Of a DNA stretch of 64,000 nt, positions 19,410-27,226 are shown in pieces. The translations under genes were made by a program, and so were the position numbers. The notes under the pieces were generated by a model, which was not told the DNA's origin, made no database searches, and worked only from the letters and a program-made list of their open reading frames with translations. Source of the stretch: Jiangella asiatica (GTDB lineage Bacteria; Actinomycetota; Actinomycetes; Jiangellales; Jiangellaceae); NCBI RefSeq assembly GCF_004349065.1, contig NZ_SMKZ01000001.1, positions 248,001-312,000 on the forward strand, written 5' to 3'. Positions within the stretch are counted from its first letter, which is position 1; the number at the start of each line of letters is the position of its first letter.

Positions 19410-19527
19410 CATGACCGAGAGTTTGCGCACTGGTCGCGGAACGGCGACCATAGTGACGCGGCATGTGAATGCTCCGCTAGAGTCCTCCCTGCTGGGGGCT
19501 CGTCGGCCACTTAGGGCACACCGACAA

Positions 19528-19563
19528 CCGCGGCCCACTCGTGTGGAGCGAGAGGGGCCGCGG
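19528..19563 (+). promoter_or_regulatory. Leader hairpin before paralogue 1
   Basis: A stable stem-loop lies 36 bases before the start codon. CCGCGGCCC (19528-19536) pairs with GGGCCGCGG (19555-19563), and an inner CTCG/CGAG helix closes the loop TGTGGAG. The same two-helix layout and nearly the same loop occur before paralogue 2. It may be a cis-acting RNA element in the 5' leader; promoter position is not established. Confidence 0.5.
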
Positions 19564-19599
19564 AGCGGGCTCCGCCATAGGTGACGACGAAGGAGCGAC

Positions 19600-21513
19600 A
19601 TGTATCCAGACGAAGGCGGTGGCGGTGAGTACACGTCCATCGACGTGGACGCGCTGGGTAGCGCGGTCGAGGACCTGGACGCCACGCTGACGGGTCTGAA
19701 GGACCACATCACCGGCCTGGAGAGCGACTTCGACTACTTCGGTGTCGACAAGTCCAACTTCAACAAGCTCATGGAGGCCAAGTCCGACCTCGAGAGCATC
19801 ATGCCGGACATGCGTCGCCGGCACAGCCTCGCGGTGCAGCTGCTGGCCGAGCAGCAGAGCAACGGCTGGGCCGGCGACGGCGTTCTCAGCGTCCAGGGGA
19901 CGGACATCCTCAACGACGACTTCGACTCGATCACGGATGCCCGGAACGCCGGCAGCGAGCTGGCCGAGCAGGTCAACAACGGCGAGGGCGAGATCCCTCC
20001 GGAGGTCTACGAGCAGCTCGAGCAGTACGGTCACGACCCCGACTTCGCCGAGGCGTTCATCAACGGGCTGTCGCCGGAGTCCCGTGGTTTGCTGATGATG
20101 GATGCGGACATCCAGGCCGAGGGCGGCGGTGGTGAGGACCCCAACGAAGGGCCGCAGCTCGCCGTCGCCGAGGTCTTCGCCACGGCCAGCTTCCGCATCG
20201 ACTACGACACAGAGTTCTTCACCGAGATCACCCAGGCCCTGCAGGACATGGATCTTCCCGGCCCGAGCATCCGGACCATGGAGACGTTCCTGCCGCTCAC
20301 GAACCACGGCAGCTGGGACCACGAGTCGCTGGCGGCGGCGGCCGAGGCCGCCACGTCCGGCGACACGAACGTCACCGGCATGGTGAACGCGAATATGTGG
20401 TCGGACCTGTGGAACGGCCTGGCCCGCAACCCGCGGGCCAGCGCGGAGTTCATGGCCGAGAACCAAGACGCCGTCTGGGAAGGCGCGCAGTTCGGGCAGT
20501 ACGAGTCGCAGGAGGCGTTCGCGAACTTCATCGAGTCCGCCACCGTCGACGCCGGGCCGATCTACGCGCGGCTGCGGCTCTACGACGAGGACCTGCCGAA
20601 CCTGGCCGAGCAGAACGCCGCCTTCCTCATCGAGAAGGTGGGCTCGCTCGAGGAGCCGTTCCCGTTCAACGACCACCTGCGCACCACCTTCGTGAACATC
20701 ACCGAGGAGTACTGGGACGACCTCGCCTACAGCCTGACCCAGCCGGCCGGCGTCAGCGACAACCCGAACCGCGACGGCATCGAGGTCAGCGCGGATGCCT
20801 GGCAGGCGTTCGTCACCGAGGGCATGCGCAACCCCGAGGGCGCCGCTCGGCTGCACGAGATGATGAGCACCTGGTACCACGACCACATCGAGTCCAACGC
20901 GGGTGCGGAGAACGGCAACGAGCACTACTGGGACGACATGATGGCGCCGAACATGGCCGGCATGTTCTCCCAGTCGTGGGAGACCGTCCTCGCCGAGATC
21001 GAGGCAGACGAGGCGGCCCGCGAGGAGTTCATCACCTCGCTGGTCGATGCCGGCTTCCAGCTCATCCCGCCGAACCCGCAGACCATCATCGACATGGGCA
21101 AGGAAGCGTTCATCGGCGCGCTGAAGGACACGATCACGTCGGCCATCGTCGGCGCGACGGCGGGCGAGGGCCCGCCGGACCTCGACTACAGCTTCTCCGG
21201 GTCGCACCACACGTGGGTGCACACGGCCGTCTCGGAGTTCAACGCTCTGCAGGGTGAGGACGGGTTCCCGACCTACAACGACGGCGACGTCACGTGGGAG
21301 GCCGATCCGCACTTCTACGAGGAGCTCTACGGTGGCGACTTCACCGACGGCGACCGCATCATCGAGCCCTACACCGATACGGGGGAGAAGAACCCGAACT
21401 TCCCGTGGGACGACCCCGACGCGTTGCACGCGTTCAACCAGTGGCTGCAGGACCCTGCCATGCAGGTCTACCTGGGTGAGAACAAGCCCGGCTTGTTCAC
21501 CACTCCGCGCTGA
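19600..21513 (+). CDS. DUF6571-like large acidic protein, tandem copy 1
   Basis: The 637-residue protein has no signal peptide or membrane segment. Residues 10-90 form a helical hairpin (DVDALGSAVEDLDATL, then a coiled region to MRRRHSLAVQLLAEQQ) resembling the WXG100/LXG-like start of DUF6571 proteins. A short GDGVLSV-type strand, a helix with GSELAEQVN, the HDPDFAEAFINGL segment and ARNPRASAEFMAE follow in the order expected for that family, which is of unknown function and found in Actinobacteria. The C-terminus, DPAMQVYLGENKPGLFTTPR, is conserved among all three copies. AAGGAG stands 4 bases before the ATG. The family assignment is from memory of the pattern. A role in type VII secretion or the envelope is inference only. 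Confidence 0.6.
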   Translation: MYPDEGGGGEYTSIDVDALGSAVEDLDATLTGLKDHITGLESDFDYFGVDKSNFNKLMEAKSDLESIMPDMRRRHSLAVQLLAEQQSNGWAGDGVLSVQGTDILNDDFDSITDARNAGSELAEQVNNGEGEIPPEVYEQLEQYGHDPDFAEAFINGLSPESRGLLMMDADIQAEGGGGEDPNEGPQLAVAEVFATASFRIDYDTEFFTEITQALQDMDLPGPSIRTMETFLPLTNHGSWDHESLAAAAEAATSGDTNVTGMVNANMWSDLWNGLARNPRASAEFMAENQDAVWEGAQFGQYESQEAFANFIESATVDAGPIYARLRLYDEDLPNLAEQNAAFLIEKVGSLEEPFPFNDHLRTTFVNITEEYWDDLAYSLTQPAGVSDNPNRDGIEVSADAWQAFVTEGMRNPEGAARLHEMMSTWYHDHIESNAGAENGNEHYWDDMMAPNMAGMFSQSWETVLAEIEADEAAREEFITSLVDAGFQLIPPNPQTIIDMGKEAFIGALKDTITSAIVGATAGEGPPDLDYSFSGSHHTWVHTAVSEFNALQGEDGFPTYNDGDVTWEADPHFYEELYGGDFTDGDRIIEPYTDTGEKNPNFPWDDPDALHAFNQWLQDPAMQVYLGENKPGLFTTPR

Positions 21514-21530
21514 TCCCGCCCGTAGGGATC
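21512..21530 (+). terminator. Small hairpin overlapping the stop of paralogue 1
   Basis: GATCCC (21512-21517) pairs with GGGATC (21525-21530), overlapping the TGA stop codon. A second short stem (CGGTGT/ACACCG) follows directly. There is no T-run, so it is at best a weak terminator or an RNA-stabilising 3' structure. Confidence 0.3.
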
Positions 21531-21553
21531 GGTGTCGGGCACACCGGCGACCG

Positions 21554-21584
21554 CGGGCCCGCTCGGGTGGAGCGAGTGGGTCCG
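21554..21584 (+). promoter_or_regulatory. Leader hairpin before paralogue 2
   Basis: GGGCCC (21555-21560) pairs with GGGTCC (21578-21583) with one G-U pair, and C21554 pairs with G21584. The inner GCTCG/CGAGT helix closes the loop GGTGGAG. Compared with the leader of copy 1, the A-A mismatch between helices becomes a G-U pair and the loop keeps GTGGAG, so the fold is better preserved than the flanking sequence. The ATG follows 25 bases later. Confidence 0.5.
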
Positions 21585-21609
21585 GGACAGGTGATGACGA
21601 AGGAGCGAC

Positions 21610-23532
21610 ATGTACCCGGACGACCAAGGCGGTGGCGGTGAGTACACGTCCATCGACGTGGACGCGCTCGGCAGTGCGGTCGAGGACCTCGACGCGACGC
21701 TGACCGGGCTGACCGATCACATCTCCGGCCTGGAGAGCGATTTCGACTACTTCGGTGTGGACAAGGCCAACTTCAACAACCTGATCGCGGCCAAGTCCGA
21801 CCTCGAGAGCATCATGCCGGACATGCGCCGCCGGCACAGTCTGGCCGTACAGCTGCTGGCCCAGCAGCAGAGCACCGGCTGGGCCGGCGACGGCGTCCTC
21901 CGCGTCCAGAGCACGGACATCCTCAACGACGACTTCGCGTCCATCTCCGACGCCCAGGACGCCGGGCGCGAACTGGCAGAGCAGGTCAACAACGCCGAGG
22001 GCGACATCCCGCCGGAGGTCTACGAGCAACTGGAGCAATACGGTCACGACCCCGACTTCGCCGAGGCGTTCGTGAACGGCCTCGACCCGGAGGCCGCTGG
22101 ACTCATGCTGGTCGAGGTCGACGAGCTGGCCAACGAGTACGGCGACGCGGCCGACGACGGGCCGCAGCTGGCGGTTGCCAACGTTTTCGCGACCGCCAGC
22201 TTCCGGATCGACTACGACGCGGAGTTCATCGGCGAGATGAACCAGGCCCTGCTCGACATGGGCGCCACGGAGGAGAGTATCCGACTGGTCGACCGGATCA
22301 GCGCGCTGACGCAGCACGGCAGCTGGGACCACGGGTCGCTGGCGGCGTTCGCCGACGCGGCGCTGCACGGCGACCACGACAGCGTCGGCACCGTCCACGA
22401 CTGGGCCGACATCTACGCCGGCCTGGCGCGCAATCCGCGGGCCAGCGCGGAGTACATGGCCGAGCACGAGGACGAGGTGTGGGAGCAGCTGCAGGTCCGG
22501 GGCCCCACGACGGATGACGAGGACTACCAGGCCGCGTTCGCCGCGTTCATCGAGTCCGCCACCGTCGACGCCGGGCCGATCTACGCGCGGCTCGGGCTCT
22601 ACGACGAGGATCTGCCGAACCTGGCCGAGCAGAACGCCGCGTTCCTCATCGGGCAGTTCGGCACGCTGGAGGAGCCGTTCCCGTTCTACGACACCTACCG
22701 GACCACGTTCGTGAACATCACCGAGGAGTACTGGGACGACCTCGTCTACAGCATGTCGCAGCCGGCTGGGGTGAGCGACAACCCGAACCGGGACGGCATC
22801 GAGGTCAGCGCGGATGCCTGGCAGGCGTTCGTCACCGAGGGCATGCGCAACCCCGAGGGTGCCGCTCGGCTGCACCAGATGGTGAGCAGCTGGTATCACG
22901 ACCACATCGAGGGCGCCGCCGGCTCCGAGAACGGCTTGGAGCACTACTGGGACGACATGATGGCGCTGAACATGGCCGGAATGTTCTCTCAGTCGTGGGA
23001 GACCGTCCTCGCCGAGATCGAGGCAGACGAGGCGGCCAGGGCGGCATTCGTCCAGTCTCTCGTCGACGCCGGCTTCCAGCTCATCCCGCCGAACCCGCAG
23101 ACCATCATCGACATGGCCAAGGACGAGTTCATCGGCGCGCTCAAGGACACGATCACGTCGGCGATCGTCGGCGCGACGGCGGGTGAAGGACCGCCCGATC
23201 TCGACTACAGCTTCTCCGGGTCGCACCACACGTGGGTGCACACGGCCGTCTCGGAGTTCAACGCTCTGCAGGGTGAGGACGGGTTCCCGACCTACAACGA
23301 CGGCGACGTCACGTGGGAGGCCGACCCGCACTTCTACGAGGAGCTCTACGGCGGCGACTTCACCGACGGCGACCGCATCATCGAACCCTACGACGAATAC
23401 GGGAACGAGAACCCCGACTTCCCGTGGGACGACCCCGACGCCCTGCACGCGTTCAACCAGTGGCTGCAGGACCCTGCCATGCAGGTCTACCTGGGTGAGA
23501 ACAAGCCCGGCTTGTTCACCACTCCGCGCTGA
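21610..23532 (+). CDS. DUF6571-like large acidic protein, tandem copy 2
   Basis: This 640-residue paralogue of copy 1 aligns along its whole length, including the N-terminal YTSIDVDALGSAVEDLDATL, HDPDFAEAFVNGL, ARNPRASAEYMAE, and the shared C-terminus. Its last third is almost identical to copy 1 at the DNA level (for example 23200-23390 against 21181-21370), which points to recent duplication or gene conversion. The middle region, about residues 165-290, is the most divergent and carries an inserted VDELANEYGDAADDG segment shared with copy 3 but not copy 1. AAGGAG lies 4 bases before the ATG. It is probably in one transcript with copy 1 (96-base gap). Confidence 0.6.
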   Translation: MYPDDQGGGGEYTSIDVDALGSAVEDLDATLTGLTDHISGLESDFDYFGVDKANFNNLIAAKSDLESIMPDMRRRHSLAVQLLAQQQSTGWAGDGVLRVQSTDILNDDFASISDAQDAGRELAEQVNNAEGDIPPEVYEQLEQYGHDPDFAEAFVNGLDPEAAGLMLVEVDELANEYGDAADDGPQLAVANVFATASFRIDYDAEFIGEMNQALLDMGATEESIRLVDRISALTQHGSWDHGSLAAFADAALHGDHDSVGTVHDWADIYAGLARNPRASAEYMAEHEDEVWEQLQVRGPTTDDEDYQAAFAAFIESATVDAGPIYARLGLYDEDLPNLAEQNAAFLIGQFGTLEEPFPFYDTYRTTFVNITEEYWDDLVYSMSQPAGVSDNPNRDGIEVSADAWQAFVTEGMRNPEGAARLHQMVSSWYHDHIEGAAGSENGLEHYWDDMMALNMAGMFSQSWETVLAEIEADEAARAAFVQSLVDAGFQLIPPNPQTIIDMAKDEFIGALKDTITSAIVGATAGEGPPDLDYSFSGSHHTWVHTAVSEFNALQGEDGFPTYNDGDVTWEADPHFYEELYGGDFTDGDRIIEPYDEYGNENPDFPWDDPDALHAFNQWLQDPAMQVYLGENKPGLFTTPR

Positions 23533-23550
23533 TCCCGGCCCACCGGGGTC
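23531..23550 (+). terminator. Hairpin at the stop of paralogue 2
   Basis: GATCCCGG (23531-23538) pairs with CCGGGGTC (23543-23550) across a CCCA loop, with one T-G pair, and overlaps the TGA. No T-run follows. It may stop or slow transcription before copy 3, which has its own distinct leader. Confidence 0.35.
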
Positions 23551-23607
23551 GATGTCGATCATGTCGGGGACCATGGCTCACGCCTCGAAAAGGGGTGAGC
23601 TACGGTT

Positions 23608-23642
23608 CTTGGTTATCGGATATGTCATAGCTGATAACCAAG
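23608..23642. promoter_or_regulatory. AT-rich palindrome overlapping the ribosome-binding site of paralogue 3
   Basis: CTTGGTTATC (23608-23617) is perfectly repeated in inverted form as GATAACCAAG (23633-23642), with a smaller TATG-T-CATA palindrome at the centre. The right arm runs into the AAGGAG at 23640-23645. The block is far more AT-rich than its surroundings. It has the size and symmetry of a repressor operator, or of an RNA hairpin that hides the ribosome-binding site. Its regulator is not evident. Confidence 0.55.
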
Positions 23643-23649
23643 GAGTGGA

Positions 23650-25560
23650 ATGAACAACCTCAACCCGGATGCGGGGGCGGAGTACACGTCCATCGACGTG
23701 GACGCGCTGGGTAGTGCGGTCGATGATCTCGACGCCACCCTGACGGGGCTCAAGGATCACATCTCGGGCCTGGAGAATGATTTCGACTATTTCGGTGTGG
23801 ACAAGTCGAACTTCAACAAGCTCATGGAGGCCAAGTCCGACCTCGAGGGCATCATGCCGGACATGCGCCGGCGGCACAGCCTGGCCGTACAGCTGCTGGC
23901 CGAGCACCAGACCAACGGGCTGTCAGGCGACGGGGTGCTCAGCATCCAGGGCACGGACATCCTCAACGACGACTTCGACTCGATCTCCGACGCCCAGGAG
24001 GCCGGTCGCGAGCTGGCCGAGCAGTTCAACAACGCCGACGACGAGATCCCGCCGGAGTTCTATGAGCAGCTCGAGCAGTACGGTCACGATCCCGACTTCG
24101 CCGAGGCGTTCGTCAACGGCTTGACGCCGGCCTCCCGCGGCATGCTCCTGATCGAGGTGGACGACCAAGCGAACGAGTACGGCGACGAAGCGGACGACGG
24201 GCCGCAGCTTGCCGTCGCGAACGTCTTCGCCACCGCGAGCTTCCGCATCGACTACGACGCGGAGTTCATCAGCGAGATGAACGAAGCGCTGCTCGAGAAC
24301 GGAACGGATGAAGGGATCCGGCTGGTCGACCGCATGAGCGCGCTCATGCAGCACGGCAGCTGGGACCACGGCTCGCTGACGGCCTTCGCCGAGGCGGCCC
24401 TGTACGGCGACCACGACACCGTCGGTGTCGTCGACAACTGGGCCGACATCTACGCCGGCCTCGCGCGCAATCCGCGGGCCAGCGCGGAGTTCATGGCCGA
24501 GCACCGCGACCAGGTGTGGGAGCAGATGCGGGTCGTCGGCTCGGAGAGCAGCCAGGATGAGTACCGCGCCGCCTACGCGGCGTTCGTCCAGTCCGCCACC
24601 ATCGATGCGCGAAGCATCTACGCGCGACTCGGACTGTACGACGACAGTCAGGTCAACCTGGCCGAGCAGAACGCCGCCTTCATCATCGAGAAGGTCGGCA
24701 CACTCGAGGAACCGTTCCCGTTCAGCGACCAGATGCGCACCACGTTCGTGAACATCACCGAGGAGTATTGGGACGACCTCGTCTACAGCATGTCGCAGCC
24801 TGCCGGGGTCAGCGACAACCCGAACCGGGCCGGCATCGAGATCGACCGCGACGCCTGGCACAACTTCGTCACCGAGGGCATGCGTGACCCTGACGGTGCC
24901 GCGCGGCTGCATCAGCTGATGAGCACCTGGTACCACGACCACATCGAGTCAAACGCCGGCGCGGAGAACGGCAACGAGCACTACTGGGACGACATGATGG
25001 CGCAGAACCTCGTCGGGATGTTCTCGTCCTCCTGGGAGACGGTCCTGGGCGAGATCGAGGCGGACGAGGCGGCCCGCGAGGAGTTCGTCGGGTCCCTCGT
25101 CGATGCCGGTTTCAACCTGATCCCGCCGGACCGCCAGGCCATCATCGACATGGCCACGACCCCGTTCATCGACGCGCTCAAGAACACGATCACGTCGGCG
25201 ATCGTCGGCGGTGGCGAGAACCCGCCCGAGTTCGACTACAGCTTCGCCGGGGCGCACCACACCTGGGTGCACACGGCGGTGTCGGAGTACAACGCGGTCC
25301 AGGACGAGGGGTTCCCCACCTACGACGACGGCATGGTCACGTGGGAGGCCGATCCGCACTTCTACGAGGAGCTCTACGGCGGCGACTTCACCAACGGCGA
25401 CCGCATCATCGAGCCGTACGACGAGCTGGGCAACGAGAACCCGGACTTCCCGTGGGACGACCCCGACGCGTTGCACGCGTTCAACCAGTGGTTGCAGGAC
25501 CCCGCCATGCAGGTCTACCTGGGTGAGAACAACCACGGGAGCTTCACCACACCGCGCTGA
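23650..25560 (+). CDS. DUF6571-like large acidic protein, tandem copy 3
   Basis: This 636-residue paralogue of the two preceding proteins starts MNNLNPDAGAEYTSIDVDALG. It keeps every conserved block (HDPDFAEAFVNGL, ARNPRASAEFMAEH, NITEEYWDDLVYSMSQPAGVSDNPNR, DPAMQVYLGENN) but is more diverged from copies 1 and 2 than they are from each other, most clearly between residues about 200 and 400 and in the C-terminal ENPPEFDYSFAG segment. No signal peptide or membrane segment is seen. The 5' leader differs from the other copies: it holds an AT-rich palindrome instead of the GC-rich hairpin, so copy 3 may be regulated separately. Function unknown. Confidence 0.6.
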   Translation: MNNLNPDAGAEYTSIDVDALGSAVDDLDATLTGLKDHISGLENDFDYFGVDKSNFNKLMEAKSDLEGIMPDMRRRHSLAVQLLAEHQTNGLSGDGVLSIQGTDILNDDFDSISDAQEAGRELAEQFNNADDEIPPEFYEQLEQYGHDPDFAEAFVNGLTPASRGMLLIEVDDQANEYGDEADDGPQLAVANVFATASFRIDYDAEFISEMNEALLENGTDEGIRLVDRMSALMQHGSWDHGSLTAFAEAALYGDHDTVGVVDNWADIYAGLARNPRASAEFMAEHRDQVWEQMRVVGSESSQDEYRAAYAAFVQSATIDARSIYARLGLYDDSQVNLAEQNAAFIIEKVGTLEEPFPFSDQMRTTFVNITEEYWDDLVYSMSQPAGVSDNPNRAGIEIDRDAWHNFVTEGMRDPDGAARLHQLMSTWYHDHIESNAGAENGNEHYWDDMMAQNLVGMFSSSWETVLGEIEADEAAREEFVGSLVDAGFNLIPPDRQAIIDMATTPFIDALKNTITSAIVGGGENPPEFDYSFAGAHHTWVHTAVSEYNAVQDEGFPTYDDGMVTWEADPHFYEELYGGDFTNGDRIIEPYDELGNENPDFPWDDPDALHAFNQWLQDPAMQVYLGENNHGSFTTPR

Positions 25561-25621: not shown

Positions 25622-26824
25622 TCAGTCCGGCAGGTCGATGAGGACGATGATCTGGTCGTCCTCCCCGGTGGCGCCGACGGCGATGGTGTCGTCGTCGAGC
25701 CACGTCGCCGGCCCCCCGAACACCGCGGCGACGGAGGTCTGGCCGTCGGGCGCGACGTAGAGCGTCGGATGCGAGGTCTGCTCGTTGCCCGCGGCGGCGT
25801 CGGCGATGGCCTGCGCCTGGTCGCTGCCGTCCTCGACCTGCCAGGCATAGGCGCCTTCGTCCCAGCCGGTGATGGGGTCGGTGCTGGCCAGGATGCCGCC
25901 GTCGGCGTTGGCCGCCAACGTGAGGAGCGGGACGCCGGGGCGGTAGTCGACGCTCCGCGCGTCGGTGGCGTCGCTGAACGGCCCGTCCTCCGTCGCCGGG
26001 GGCAGCTCGCCCCCGCCGCCCAGCACCACCGTCGCCGTGCCGTCCTGGACGGTGTACACGCTCTGCGGGGTCTGCACGATCACCTGGTCGTCGGGGCCGG
26101 CCGCGATGGCCGTCTCGGTGAACAGCGTGAGGTCCGACGCCGCCGTGCCGTCCTCGGGGAAGAACACCGCGTCATCCTCGCCGTCGGCCACGGAACCGTC
26201 GGCGTCAGGGTTCGGCCGGCCGGCGACGGTGGCCAGCTCACCGCCGTCCTCGACGCGGCGCACGACGTAACCGGCGTCCGGGCCGACCGGGTCGACCCGC
26301 TCGACGAACAGCAGCCGGCCCTCGGAGTCGACGGCGATGTCGCTGACGTAGCCGAGCTCGGCCGCCGCGGCCGGTTCGCCGTCCGGCGTGACCGGACCGG
26401 GTGTATCGATCGAGGGCGCTGGGATGCCCGCGGCCGGCACCAGCTCGCCGTCGGACAGCTCGTAGACGACGGCCTCGCCGGCCTCCTGCCCCTGCTCGTC
26501 CGGAAGCACGAACACGCGGCCGTCCGGCGCGGCGGCGATCTCCTGCACCGAGCCATCGTCGAGCTGGAGCTCCGTGGACCGGACGGCACCGTCGGAGCTG
26601 ATCTCGACGACGACGTCGAAGCCGTTGACGCCCCACAGCGTGCCGTTGCCGTCGGAGGTGAGCCGCACGATCGAGAAGGGCAATGAGGCGTCGGCGCCGG
26701 ACCCGTCGGGCTGGTCGCCGCCGCCGGCCAGGAGGCGCACCTCGGCACCGTCGTCGTCGGATGAGCAGGCCGACGCCACCGTCAGCGCGAGGACCGTTCC
26801 AATGACTATCTTCCTGGTTCGCAC
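25622..26824 (-). CDS. Lipoprotein with beta-propeller (NHL/SMP-30-like) repeats
   Basis: The 400-residue protein starts at GTG 26824 and has a signal peptide with a lipobox (VLALTVASAC, cysteine about residue 20), so it is predicted to be anchored on the outer face of the membrane. The mature part is made of repeated blade-like units such as LTSDGNGTLWGVNG, IAAAPDGRVFVLPD, IAVDSEGRLLFVER, and LAANADGGILASTD, typical of NHL or SMP-30-type beta-propellers. No catalytic site is apparent, so it is more likely a ligand-binding or sensory protein than an enzyme. It is convergent with the triplicated gene set and divergent from the small WXG100-like gene. Confidence 0.7.
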   Translation of the reverse strand: MRTRKIVIGTVLALTVASACSSDDDGAEVRLLAGGGDQPDGSGADASLPFSIVRLTSDGNGTLWGVNGFDVVVEISSDGAVRSTELQLDDGSVQEIAAAPDGRVFVLPDEQGQEAGEAVVYELSDGELVPAAGIPAPSIDTPGPVTPDGEPAAAAELGYVSDIAVDSEGRLLFVERVDPVGPDAGYVVRRVEDGGELATVAGRPNPDADGSVADGEDDAVFFPEDGTAASDLTLFTETAIAAGPDDQVIVQTPQSVYTVQDGTATVVLGGGGELPPATEDGPFSDATDARSVDYRPGVPLLTLAANADGGILASTDPITGWDEGAYAWQVEDGSDQAQAIADAAAGNEQTSHPTLYVAPDGQTSVAAVFGGPATWLDDDTIAVGATGEDDQIIVLIDLPD

Positions 26825-26914
26825 TGAGTCACCCTAACCGTCGGCATCGCTCCGGCATTCGAAGCGACATGTTAGCCTCACCGTGGTGGTGACTGGACTC
26901 GAAAGCAGGTAGTG

Positions 26915-27226
26915 ATGGGTGACGACGTCAACATGGTGCCCAACCCCTACATCTCCGCGATGGAGGGGCTTGTGACTCGTACCGAGAATGCGGTGGCGGA
27001 CACGCCGAACATGGACGCGCCGACGGAGTCCATCGGCGAAGGACCGGCGTGGAGCGGCTCCAAGGCTCGGCAGATCCACGACGACTACCTCTCGCCCAAC
27101 GCCGGGCCGGTGAAGACCGCCCTCAACCAGCTGGTGGGCGACGTCGAGGAGAAGAAGGGCGAGCTCGACCCGGAGGTGCCCGAGGGCACCGCCCGGGCGA
27201 TGCGCTACGACCTGCAGATGCGCTGA
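26915..27226 (+). CDS. Small WXG100-like helical protein
   Basis: This is a 103-residue helical protein without signal peptide. It contains the segment GPAWSGSKARQIHDDYLSP, which resembles the W-x-G turn between the two helices of WXG100-type proteins, but the spacing and ends do not allow firm assignment. The ATG at 26915 is 5 bases after CAGG; a GTG at 26912 is possible but too close to it. Its position beside the DUF6571-like triplet and the divergent propeller lipoprotein suggests a related role, possibly as a secreted or partner protein. This link is inference. Confidence 0.55.
   Translation: MGDDVNMVPNPYISAMEGLVTRTENAVADTPNMDAPTESIGEGPAWSGSKARQIHDDYLSPNAGPVKTALNQLVGDVEEKKGELDPEVPEGTARAMRYDLQMR

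What the first reader, a model, noticed from the sequence alone, without database searches (positions are those of the whole stretch)
19600..25560. Tandem triplet of 640-residue DUF6571-like proteins with a WXG100-like gene and a propeller lipoprotein nearby
Seen: three adjacent, full-length paralogues of 636-640 residues without signal peptide or membrane segment, each with a helical N-terminal region and a conserved C-terminal block. A convergent beta-propeller lipoprotein and a small W-x-G protein follow. Known: DUF6571 is a function-unknown actinobacterial family with WXG-like N-termini. Inference: the set forms one system, perhaps related to type VII secretion or cell-surface structure. 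Triplication suggests dose or variant selection.
Basis: partly seen in the sequence, partly recalled or inferred. Interest (0 to 1): 0.75.

Follow-up and report, generated by a model that had tools for sequence, protein, structure and literature searches.

The report
Type VII secretion effector-like protein triplet
Three near-copies of a large helical bacterial protein, together with a small helper and a surface-anchored partner, look like cargo of an unusual protein-secretion machine, which would give a role to a protein family that has none.

Summary
The triplet is real: 637, 640 and 636 aa, 75-81% identical, in a Jiangella genome (genus inferred from named relatives), its only close copies there. 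The proteins miss Pfam's DUF6571 cut-off but connect to it through relatives. The three-gene set (large protein, convergent NHL-propeller lipoprotein, W-x-G protein) is kept in 11 of 11 loci with the close full-length protein. In three Phytoactinopolyspora genomes it abuts the ATPase gene of a type VII secretion system (T7SS); in the window's genome that gene lies on another contig, beside Tad-pilus genes. Relatives join the same N-terminal domain to other C-termini (Abhydrolase_8, an HExxH protein, a toxin-like module). The propeller varies with the C-terminal half of the large protein, not with its N-terminus, the W-x-G partner or the flanks; P. halophila gives a second, independent case. 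Outside the order, 2 of 6 genomes read repeat the pattern W-x-G + large protein + lipoprotein. Best reading: T7SS substrates with a dedicated export partner and a cognate surface lipoprotein, most likely an effector-immunity pair. Export and toxicity are inferred, not shown. Rival: a surface complex. The triplication is a mosaic seen only in this genome.

The parts
19472..19485 (+). 14-base element 115 bases before copy 1; identical copies lie about 97-116 bases before the gene in the other 6 Jiangella loci; no other match with up to 2 mismatches in the window
19600..21513 (+). copy 1, 637 aa: predicted helical hairpin, helical body, C-terminal block
21610..23532 (+). copy 2, 640 aa
23650..25560 (+). 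copy 3, 636 aa; the copy whose structure was predicted
25622..26824 (-). NHL beta-propeller lipoprotein, 400 aa, convergent; varies with residues 331-636 of the large protein
26912..27226 (+). 104-aa W-x-G protein, likely export partner (Lap-like)

Best explanation
The three large proteins are candidate substrates of an EssC-type, Tad-linked type VII secretion system encoded elsewhere in the genome (contig C86). Proposed steps: (1) the N-terminal ~110 residues form a WXG/LXG-like hairpin that pairs with the 104-aa W-x-G protein; (2) the pair is recognised by the EccC/EssC-like ATPase and exported; (3) outside, the C-terminal half (331-636) binds the lipid-anchored NHL propeller made by the same cell; (4) most likely the large protein acts on neighbouring cells' envelopes and the propeller is the producer's immunity protein. 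Shown by computation: gene linkage, N-terminal domain shared by different C-termini, propeller fold, joint variation with the C-terminal half. Inferred: pairing, export, binding, toxicity. My odds: export by this T7SS about 0.75; propeller as direct partner about 0.65; antagonism with immunity about 0.5.
For: Linkage: 14 of 20 near-complete Jiangellales genomes have a family hit within 15 kb of the ATPase gene (my count); the whole cassette abuts it in 3 Phytoactinopolyspora genomes. Modularity: the N-terminal domain is joined to Abhydrolase_8 (2.6e-34) or to an HExxH-containing C-terminus, each beside a W-x-G gene; the C-terminal 270 aa of a paralogue in the window's own genome match proteins in 31 of 393 genomes (own included), mostly in separable parts. 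Joint variation: J. aurantiaca vs J. rhizosphaerae, flanking glycosyltransferase 96%, partner 88%, N-domain 89%, C-part 54%, propeller 42%; partial Mantel 99 of 5040 permutations (C-part), 779 (N), 1353 (partner); P. halophila gives the same link across genera. Close propeller present in 11 of 11 genomes with the close large protein and 1 of 9 without, Fisher 7e-5.
Against: No toxin or enzyme domain is recognisable in the window proteins. The helical body is not a discrete C-terminal toxin. The hairpin is predicted at pLDDT about 30-58. The W-x-G protein has no Pfam hit. The propeller is convergent, not in the same operon as is usual for immunity genes. In 6 of 20 genomes, the window's included, the family hit is not near the ATPase gene. 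In the class sample only 5 of 118 genomes have a DUF6571 hit at 1e-8, and that hit is beside the ATPase gene in 2 of the 5 (G020, G104). The Mantel result rests on 7 genomes and mainly two divergent lineages; the Fisher value ignores shared ancestry. One orphan propeller exists (G020 C6) and one relative lacks a propeller (G019 C1, L148). Three large proteins face a single propeller.
Confidence: 0.6

Rival explanations
1. The exported large protein is a structural or adhesive surface protein. The lipoprotein anchors or receives it, and the Tad-linked T7SS builds a surface assembly used in attachment or kin recognition.
For: Helical body with no enzyme signature; Tad genes beside the ATPase; lipoproteins next to relatives in two genomes outside the order, one carrying a copy of the large protein's own C-terminal block; anchoring would also make partners vary together.
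Against: The N-domain and W-x-G partner also serve enzyme-like and toxin-like C-termini. Rapid matched change of two partners is typical of effector-immunity pairs (general knowledge).
Confidence: 0.27
2. Cytoplasmic proteins unrelated to secretion that share a helical N-terminal domain by descent; the linkage to the ATPase reflects a shared ancestral locus only.
For: No secretion was measured; in the window's genome the set lies apart from the T7SS genes; the invariant YxxxD is not at the position known for export motifs; DUF6571 hits in G067 and G093 are not beside an ATPase gene.
Against: Linkage to the ATPase in several genera and in G104 and G322 outside the order, a W-x-G gene beside most members, and a lipoprotein partner that must sit outside the membrane.
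Confidence: 0.13

Closest known systems
DUF6571 (Pfam PF20211)
   Same: Similar length and N-terminal region; of 10 relatives scanned, 3 hit it: G010 15.7 bits, G001 25.0, G011 48.0, cut-off 27
   Different: Window proteins give no hit at E <= 1
LXG effectors with Lap partners (T7SSb; Klein 2022, PMC9600955, abstract and passages seen)
   Same: N-terminal helical region expected to pair with a small WXG-like partner; variable C-terminal part; cognate gene nearby
   Different: No LXG Pfam hit; one small partner gene seen, not two; large helical body; Actinomycetota; invariant YxxxD lies before helix 1, not near the end of helix 2
T7SSg and T7SSh (Garrett 2024, PMC11217815; abstract, passages and one section seen)
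   Same: T7SS beside a Tad locus; T7SSg has a beta-propeller component
   Different: Both reported in Bacillota; TsgL is a DUF5050 propeller, this one an NHL-type lipoprotein without a DUF5050 hit; here a ~1000-aa BTAD protein sits in the locus
T7SSd (Garrett 2024), the only new subtype its abstract places in Actinomycetota
   Same: EssC-like ATPase and WXG100-type protein
   Different: T7SSd is described with a kinase (TsdD), TsdH and TsdI; none was recognised in the Jiangella stretch L064, where 7 of 14 called genes were scanned with Pfam, so this is not a full test

Membership tests
DUF6571 (PF20211) | score at or above Pfam's gathering cut-off (27 bits) | tested here: not met
   no PF20211 hit at E <= 1 for any of the three
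T7SS LXG-type effector | LXG domain by Pfam | tested here: not met
   no LXG hit at E <= 1; that the library holds an LXG model is recalled
T7SS effector in the wider (WXG/LXG-like) sense | N-terminal helical hairpin targeting domain | tested here: inconclusive
   helices 17-48 and 52-88 predicted, but pLDDT about 30-58
T7SS effector in the wider sense | dedicated small W-x-G partner gene | tested here: met
   present in 11 of 11 close loci (L034-L043 and the window); W and G invariant in 11 aligned rows; Pfam WXG100 itself not hit
T7SS effector in the wider sense | same N-domain with different C-termini | tested here: met
T7SS effector in the wider sense | T7SS-dependent export | not testable with these tools
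   needs an experiment
Toxin-immunity pair | cognate variation of partner gene with the toxin part | tested here: met
   few independent lineages
Toxin-immunity pair | toxicity neutralised by the partner | not testable with these tools
   needs an experiment
T7SSb | EssB/YukC (PF10140) | tested here: not met
   0 of 22 genomes at E <= 1e-5; control Bacillus subtilis rang
T7SSa (ESX) | EccB and EccD | tested here: inconclusive
   0 of 22 over the cut-off for each (EccD: two weak partial hits), but no control genome rang
T7SS (any) | EccC/EssC ATPase and WXG100 protein | tested here: inconclusive
   ATPase: TIGR03928 595.5 bits (cut-off 778.4), TIGR03924 409.4 (509.15), TIGR03925 347.8, just over its 346.55; 90-aa protein WXG100 24.8 bits, cut-off 27.3
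T7SSg | DUF5050 propeller TsgL | tested here: not met
   no DUF5050 hit for the propeller at E <= 1 (that the library holds this model is recalled); fold matches NHL propellers

The most novel reading that the evidence does not exclude
DUF6571-like proteins are an unrecognised class of T7SS cargo in Actinomycetota, made with a W-x-G export partner and a cognate surface lipoprotein. In Jiangellaceae and at least one other family they are served by a Tad-linked, EssC-type T7SS not covered by the published subtypes, in which pilus and secretion machine act together. In one lineage the lipoprotein carries a copy of the cargo's own C-terminal block, suggesting immunity or anchoring by mimicry. (Lowered from 0.3 on rechecking: only 2 of 5 DUF6571 hits in the class sample are beside the ATPase gene.)
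Probability: 0.25. Interest if true: 0.8.

Novelty: new variant of a known kind. Interest (0 to 1): 0.6.

Why it matters
It turns an uncharacterised family into a testable hypothesis: export by a named ATPase, binding to a named lipoprotein. It also bears on a question left open in Garrett 2024 (passages), who could not say whether the Tad-T7SS neighbourhood in two Bacillota subtypes is functional or coincidental: here such a neighbourhood appears in Actinomycetota, in Jiangellaceae and in one genome each of two further families (G104, G127), out of nine ATPase loci read outside the order.

Tried and rejected
Pfam, NCBIfam and PADLOC scans of the window proteins gave no family over a cut-off (PADLOC was given copies 1 and 3 and the propeller). 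Solved-structure sequence search with profile A2 gave only marginal hits (best 0.011). Fold search of the large protein gave armadillo/HEAT-like matches (best Z 9.0, rmsd 9.6, 278 aligned; Foldseek none at E <= 0.001), read as a common helical arrangement only. The toxin-like module of L136 had no named family; 'nuclease-like' would rest on a recalled D...ExK-type motif, and 'toxin-like' is my label from its distribution. The antisense 1365-aa ORF was rejected as an artefact. YxxxD: an invariant Y-x-x-x-D lies before helix 1, not near the end of helix 2 where export motifs are reported, so it is not used as evidence. No tRNA, no Rfam hit at gathering, no sigma-70-like site (0 found, 0.5 expected). 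The first genome-contig scan found nothing; the second, with a better profile, found 8 loci. Literature: 'DUF6571' 0 papers; 'type VII secretion' with 'Jiangella' 0. Listings seen: 18 of 18, 20 of 63, 15 of 159, 15 of 20, 10 of 10; titles and abstract starts showed nothing on this family, but the unlisted papers were not seen. Three papers were looked into: PMC11217815 (abstract, passages, section 15), PMC9600955 (abstract, passages), PMC3482391 (passages).
Full report
Observation. Three intact genes (19600-21513, 21610-23532, 23650-25560, all +) encode proteins of 637, 640 and 636 aa that are 75-81% identical. A search of the genome (7.03 Mb in 134 contigs) with copy 3 finds only these three; a search with a 700-aa relative adds two distant paralogues on contigs C32 and C51. 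The convergent 400-aa lipoprotein (25622-26824, -) and the 104-aa W-x-G protein (26912-27226, +) are as described. The order name Jiangellales is recalled; all 22 genomes of the order search carry the same family label.

Family. No Pfam family reaches its cut-off. The link to DUF6571 runs through relatives: of 10 scanned, three hit PF20211, namely G010 15.7 bits, the distant G001 homologue 25.0 and the G011 700-aa relative 48.0, cut-off 27. A profile of 12 members finds 22 of 393 class genomes: 18 in the window's family and 4 outside, of which G273 has a full-length relative at 9e-75 and the other three are partial and weak.

Gene set. The close full-length protein, the propeller and the W-x-G gene occur together in 11 of 11 loci: the window plus L034-L043. 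The G021 (P. halophila) large gene is broken in frame. In L040-L043 no other window ORF of 80 aa or more matches at 1e-10, so the set is not kept merely by its surroundings. The lipobox cysteine is invariant in 9 of 9 aligned propellers. Among 20 near-complete genomes, close propellers (E < 1e-100) are in 11 of the 11 with the close protein and 1 of the 9 without (Fisher 7e-5; shared ancestry not corrected). Three distant large proteins (G001, G020 C14, G019 C39) also have a propeller hit nearby. Exceptions: a propeller in G020 C6 without the close large protein, and a relative without a propeller in G019 C1 (L148).

Secretion system. All 20 near-complete genomes carry an ATPase gene with an open frame of 1557-1659 aa that matches a T7SS model. 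The window genome's own copy scores 595.5 bits for EssC (below its cut-off), 409.4 for EccCa (below) and 347.8 for EccCb (just above). In 14 of the 20 a family member lies within 15 kb of it (my count). The other six (G000, G006, G009, G010, G013, G015) all carry the window-type cassette, on another contig or at least 330 kb away; in four of them (L066-L069) a shorter hairpin relative of 363-501 aa is beside the ATPase gene. In the window's genome the ATPase gene is on contig C86 (L064), with a 90-aa WXG100-like protein (24.8 bits, cut-off 27.3), a 1003-aa BTAD protein with a weak LysM match, and Tad genes (TadE, T2SSF, T2SSE/TadA, SAF/CpaB). The contig ends 93 bases past the ATPase gene, so its downstream neighbours are not seen there; contig C51 (L137) carries a W-x-G gene and a 355-aa hairpin relative that may be the continuation (inference). 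EssB is absent (0 of 22, control rang). EccB and EccD were not found over the cut-off, but no control rang, so absence is not shown. Of nine ATPase loci read outside the order (G104, G093, G051, G127, G120, G101, G065, G036; G322), two (G104, G127) are clearly Tad-linked. In the class sample only 5 of 118 genomes have a DUF6571 hit at 1e-8, and that hit is close to an ATPase hit in two (G020, G104), not in G002 (its C266 hit), G067 or G093.

Modular N-terminus. In G020 and G019 the same N-terminal ~100 aa are joined to an HExxH-containing C-terminus (367 aa, one in each genome) and in G019 to Abhydrolase_8 (2.6e-34), each next to a W-x-G gene. In the window's own genome, L136 (contig C32) has a W-x-G gene, a 670-aa paralogue and a 162-aa gene that starts at its stop. 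The last 270 aa of that paralogue match proteins with open frames of 271-3417 aa in 31 of 393 genomes (own included), mostly over only the first ~55-90 residues or only the last ~110-160. That is the exchange pattern of polymorphic toxins described in general terms in PMC3482391, one passage of which states that WXG-like bundles are strictly associated with T7SS.

Matched variation. Within Jiangella the N-domain and W-x-G partner tend to follow the flanking genes, while residues 121-636 and the propeller change together. For J. aurantiaca vs J. rhizosphaerae: flanks 96 and 94%, partner 88%, N-domain 89%, C-part 54%, propeller 42%. Partial Mantel with the propeller, controlling for a flanking gene, 7 genomes: r 0.86, 99 of 5040 (471-636); 0.81, 116 (331-470); 0.84, 101 (121-330); 0.34, 779 (N); 0.17, 1353 (partner). 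The signal rests mainly on two lineages (G013, G006). P. halophila is an independent test (the tool labels it a separate genus, g6). Its propeller is 45-47% identical to five Jiangella ones (34-36% to those of G013 and G006) but 30-33% to the three of Phytoactinopolyspora. Its residues 331-470 go the same way (58-63% for those five vs 36-40%; G013 59%, G006 38%), as do 471-636 (41-49% vs 31-34%; G013 44%, G006 38%), while 190-330 are closer to, or level with, Phytoactinopolyspora (45-56% vs 33-46%). So the propeller follows the C-terminal half, imperfectly for G013.

Lipoproteins elsewhere. In nine genomes with a 700-aa DUF6571-type relative next to the ATPase gene a different lipoprotein of about 200 aa follows it (L043, L046, L050-L053; L049, L065, L071). 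G104 has two sets of W-x-G gene, DUF6571-type gene (33.1 and 79.7 bits) and lipoprotein. In G273 the order is W-x-G gene, large protein, lipoprotein, and residues 67-139 of the lipoprotein match the C-terminal block of the large protein (33 bits; 8.9e-8 in the genome search; BLASTP 6e-8 against its neighbour alone). Four other genomes outside the order with a family member (G067, G322, G343, G221) show no lipoprotein beside it. Within the family, L136, L148 and L149 also lack one. My lipobox pattern marks 45 of 771 called genes, flanks and overlapping loci included; it missed three of the ten propellers because of their called starts.

Structure. The propeller model is good (pLDDT 83.6) and matches NHL propellers (teneurin NHL domain Z 26.6, rmsd 3.1, 292 aligned; PknD sensor Z 20.9, rmsd 2.9, 236 aligned). 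The large-protein model is mediocre (66.3): two N-terminal helices at low confidence, then a helical body matching armadillo/HEAT proteins only in a general way.

Triplication. Of the 11 genomes only this one shows three copies (several are drafts). They are mosaics: copy 1 at residues 216-300 is 85-86% like J. rhizosphaerae but 42-63% like its own sister copies; at 531-580 copies 1 and 2 are identical. A 14-base element about 97-116 bases upstream is shared by all 7 Jiangella loci and stands only before copy 1, as expected if copies 2 and 3 arose by duplication and share its transcript (inference). The single propeller fits the fact that the copies' C-terminal parts stay alike.

Verdict. It is filed as a new variant of a known kind: T7SS cargo with partner and cognate lipoprotein. 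It is not filed as DUF6571 or LXG, whose tests were not met. On rechecking, the odds of the most novel reading were lowered from 0.3 to 0.25 because of the class-level count above.

Noticed in passing
19477-23574 (-): A 1365-aa open frame runs antisense through copies 1 and 2; low-complexity composition, read as an artefact.
   Followed up: partly
23609-23641: 9-base inverted repeat TTGGTTATC...GATAACCAA just before copy 3 overlaps the start of its ribosome-binding site; copies 1 and 2 have different G+C-rich stems in their leaders.
   Followed up: partly
L136:10100-12888 (window's own genome, contig C32): W-x-G gene, 670-aa paralogue with an exchangeable toxin-like C-terminus, and a 162-aa gene starting at its stop: a probable toxin-immunity locus.
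   Followed up: partly
L144:9442-9951 (G273): Lipoprotein carrying a copy of the neighbouring large protein's C-terminal block.
   Followed up: partly
L064 (contig C86): Tad-pilus genes, a BTAD protein with a weak LysM match, a WXG100-like gene and an EssC-like ATPase in one run; the contig ends 93 bases after the ATPase gene.
   Followed up: partly
large proteins, residues 11-16: Invariant Y-x-x-x-D before helix 1, also in L046, L047 and L144, whose neighbour is the 104-aa type of W-x-G protein; not at the known export-motif position.
   Followed up: partly
L085:9992-11870: P. halophila copy of the large gene is broken in frame (decay or sequencing error); its propeller and W-x-G genes are open.
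   Followed up: no
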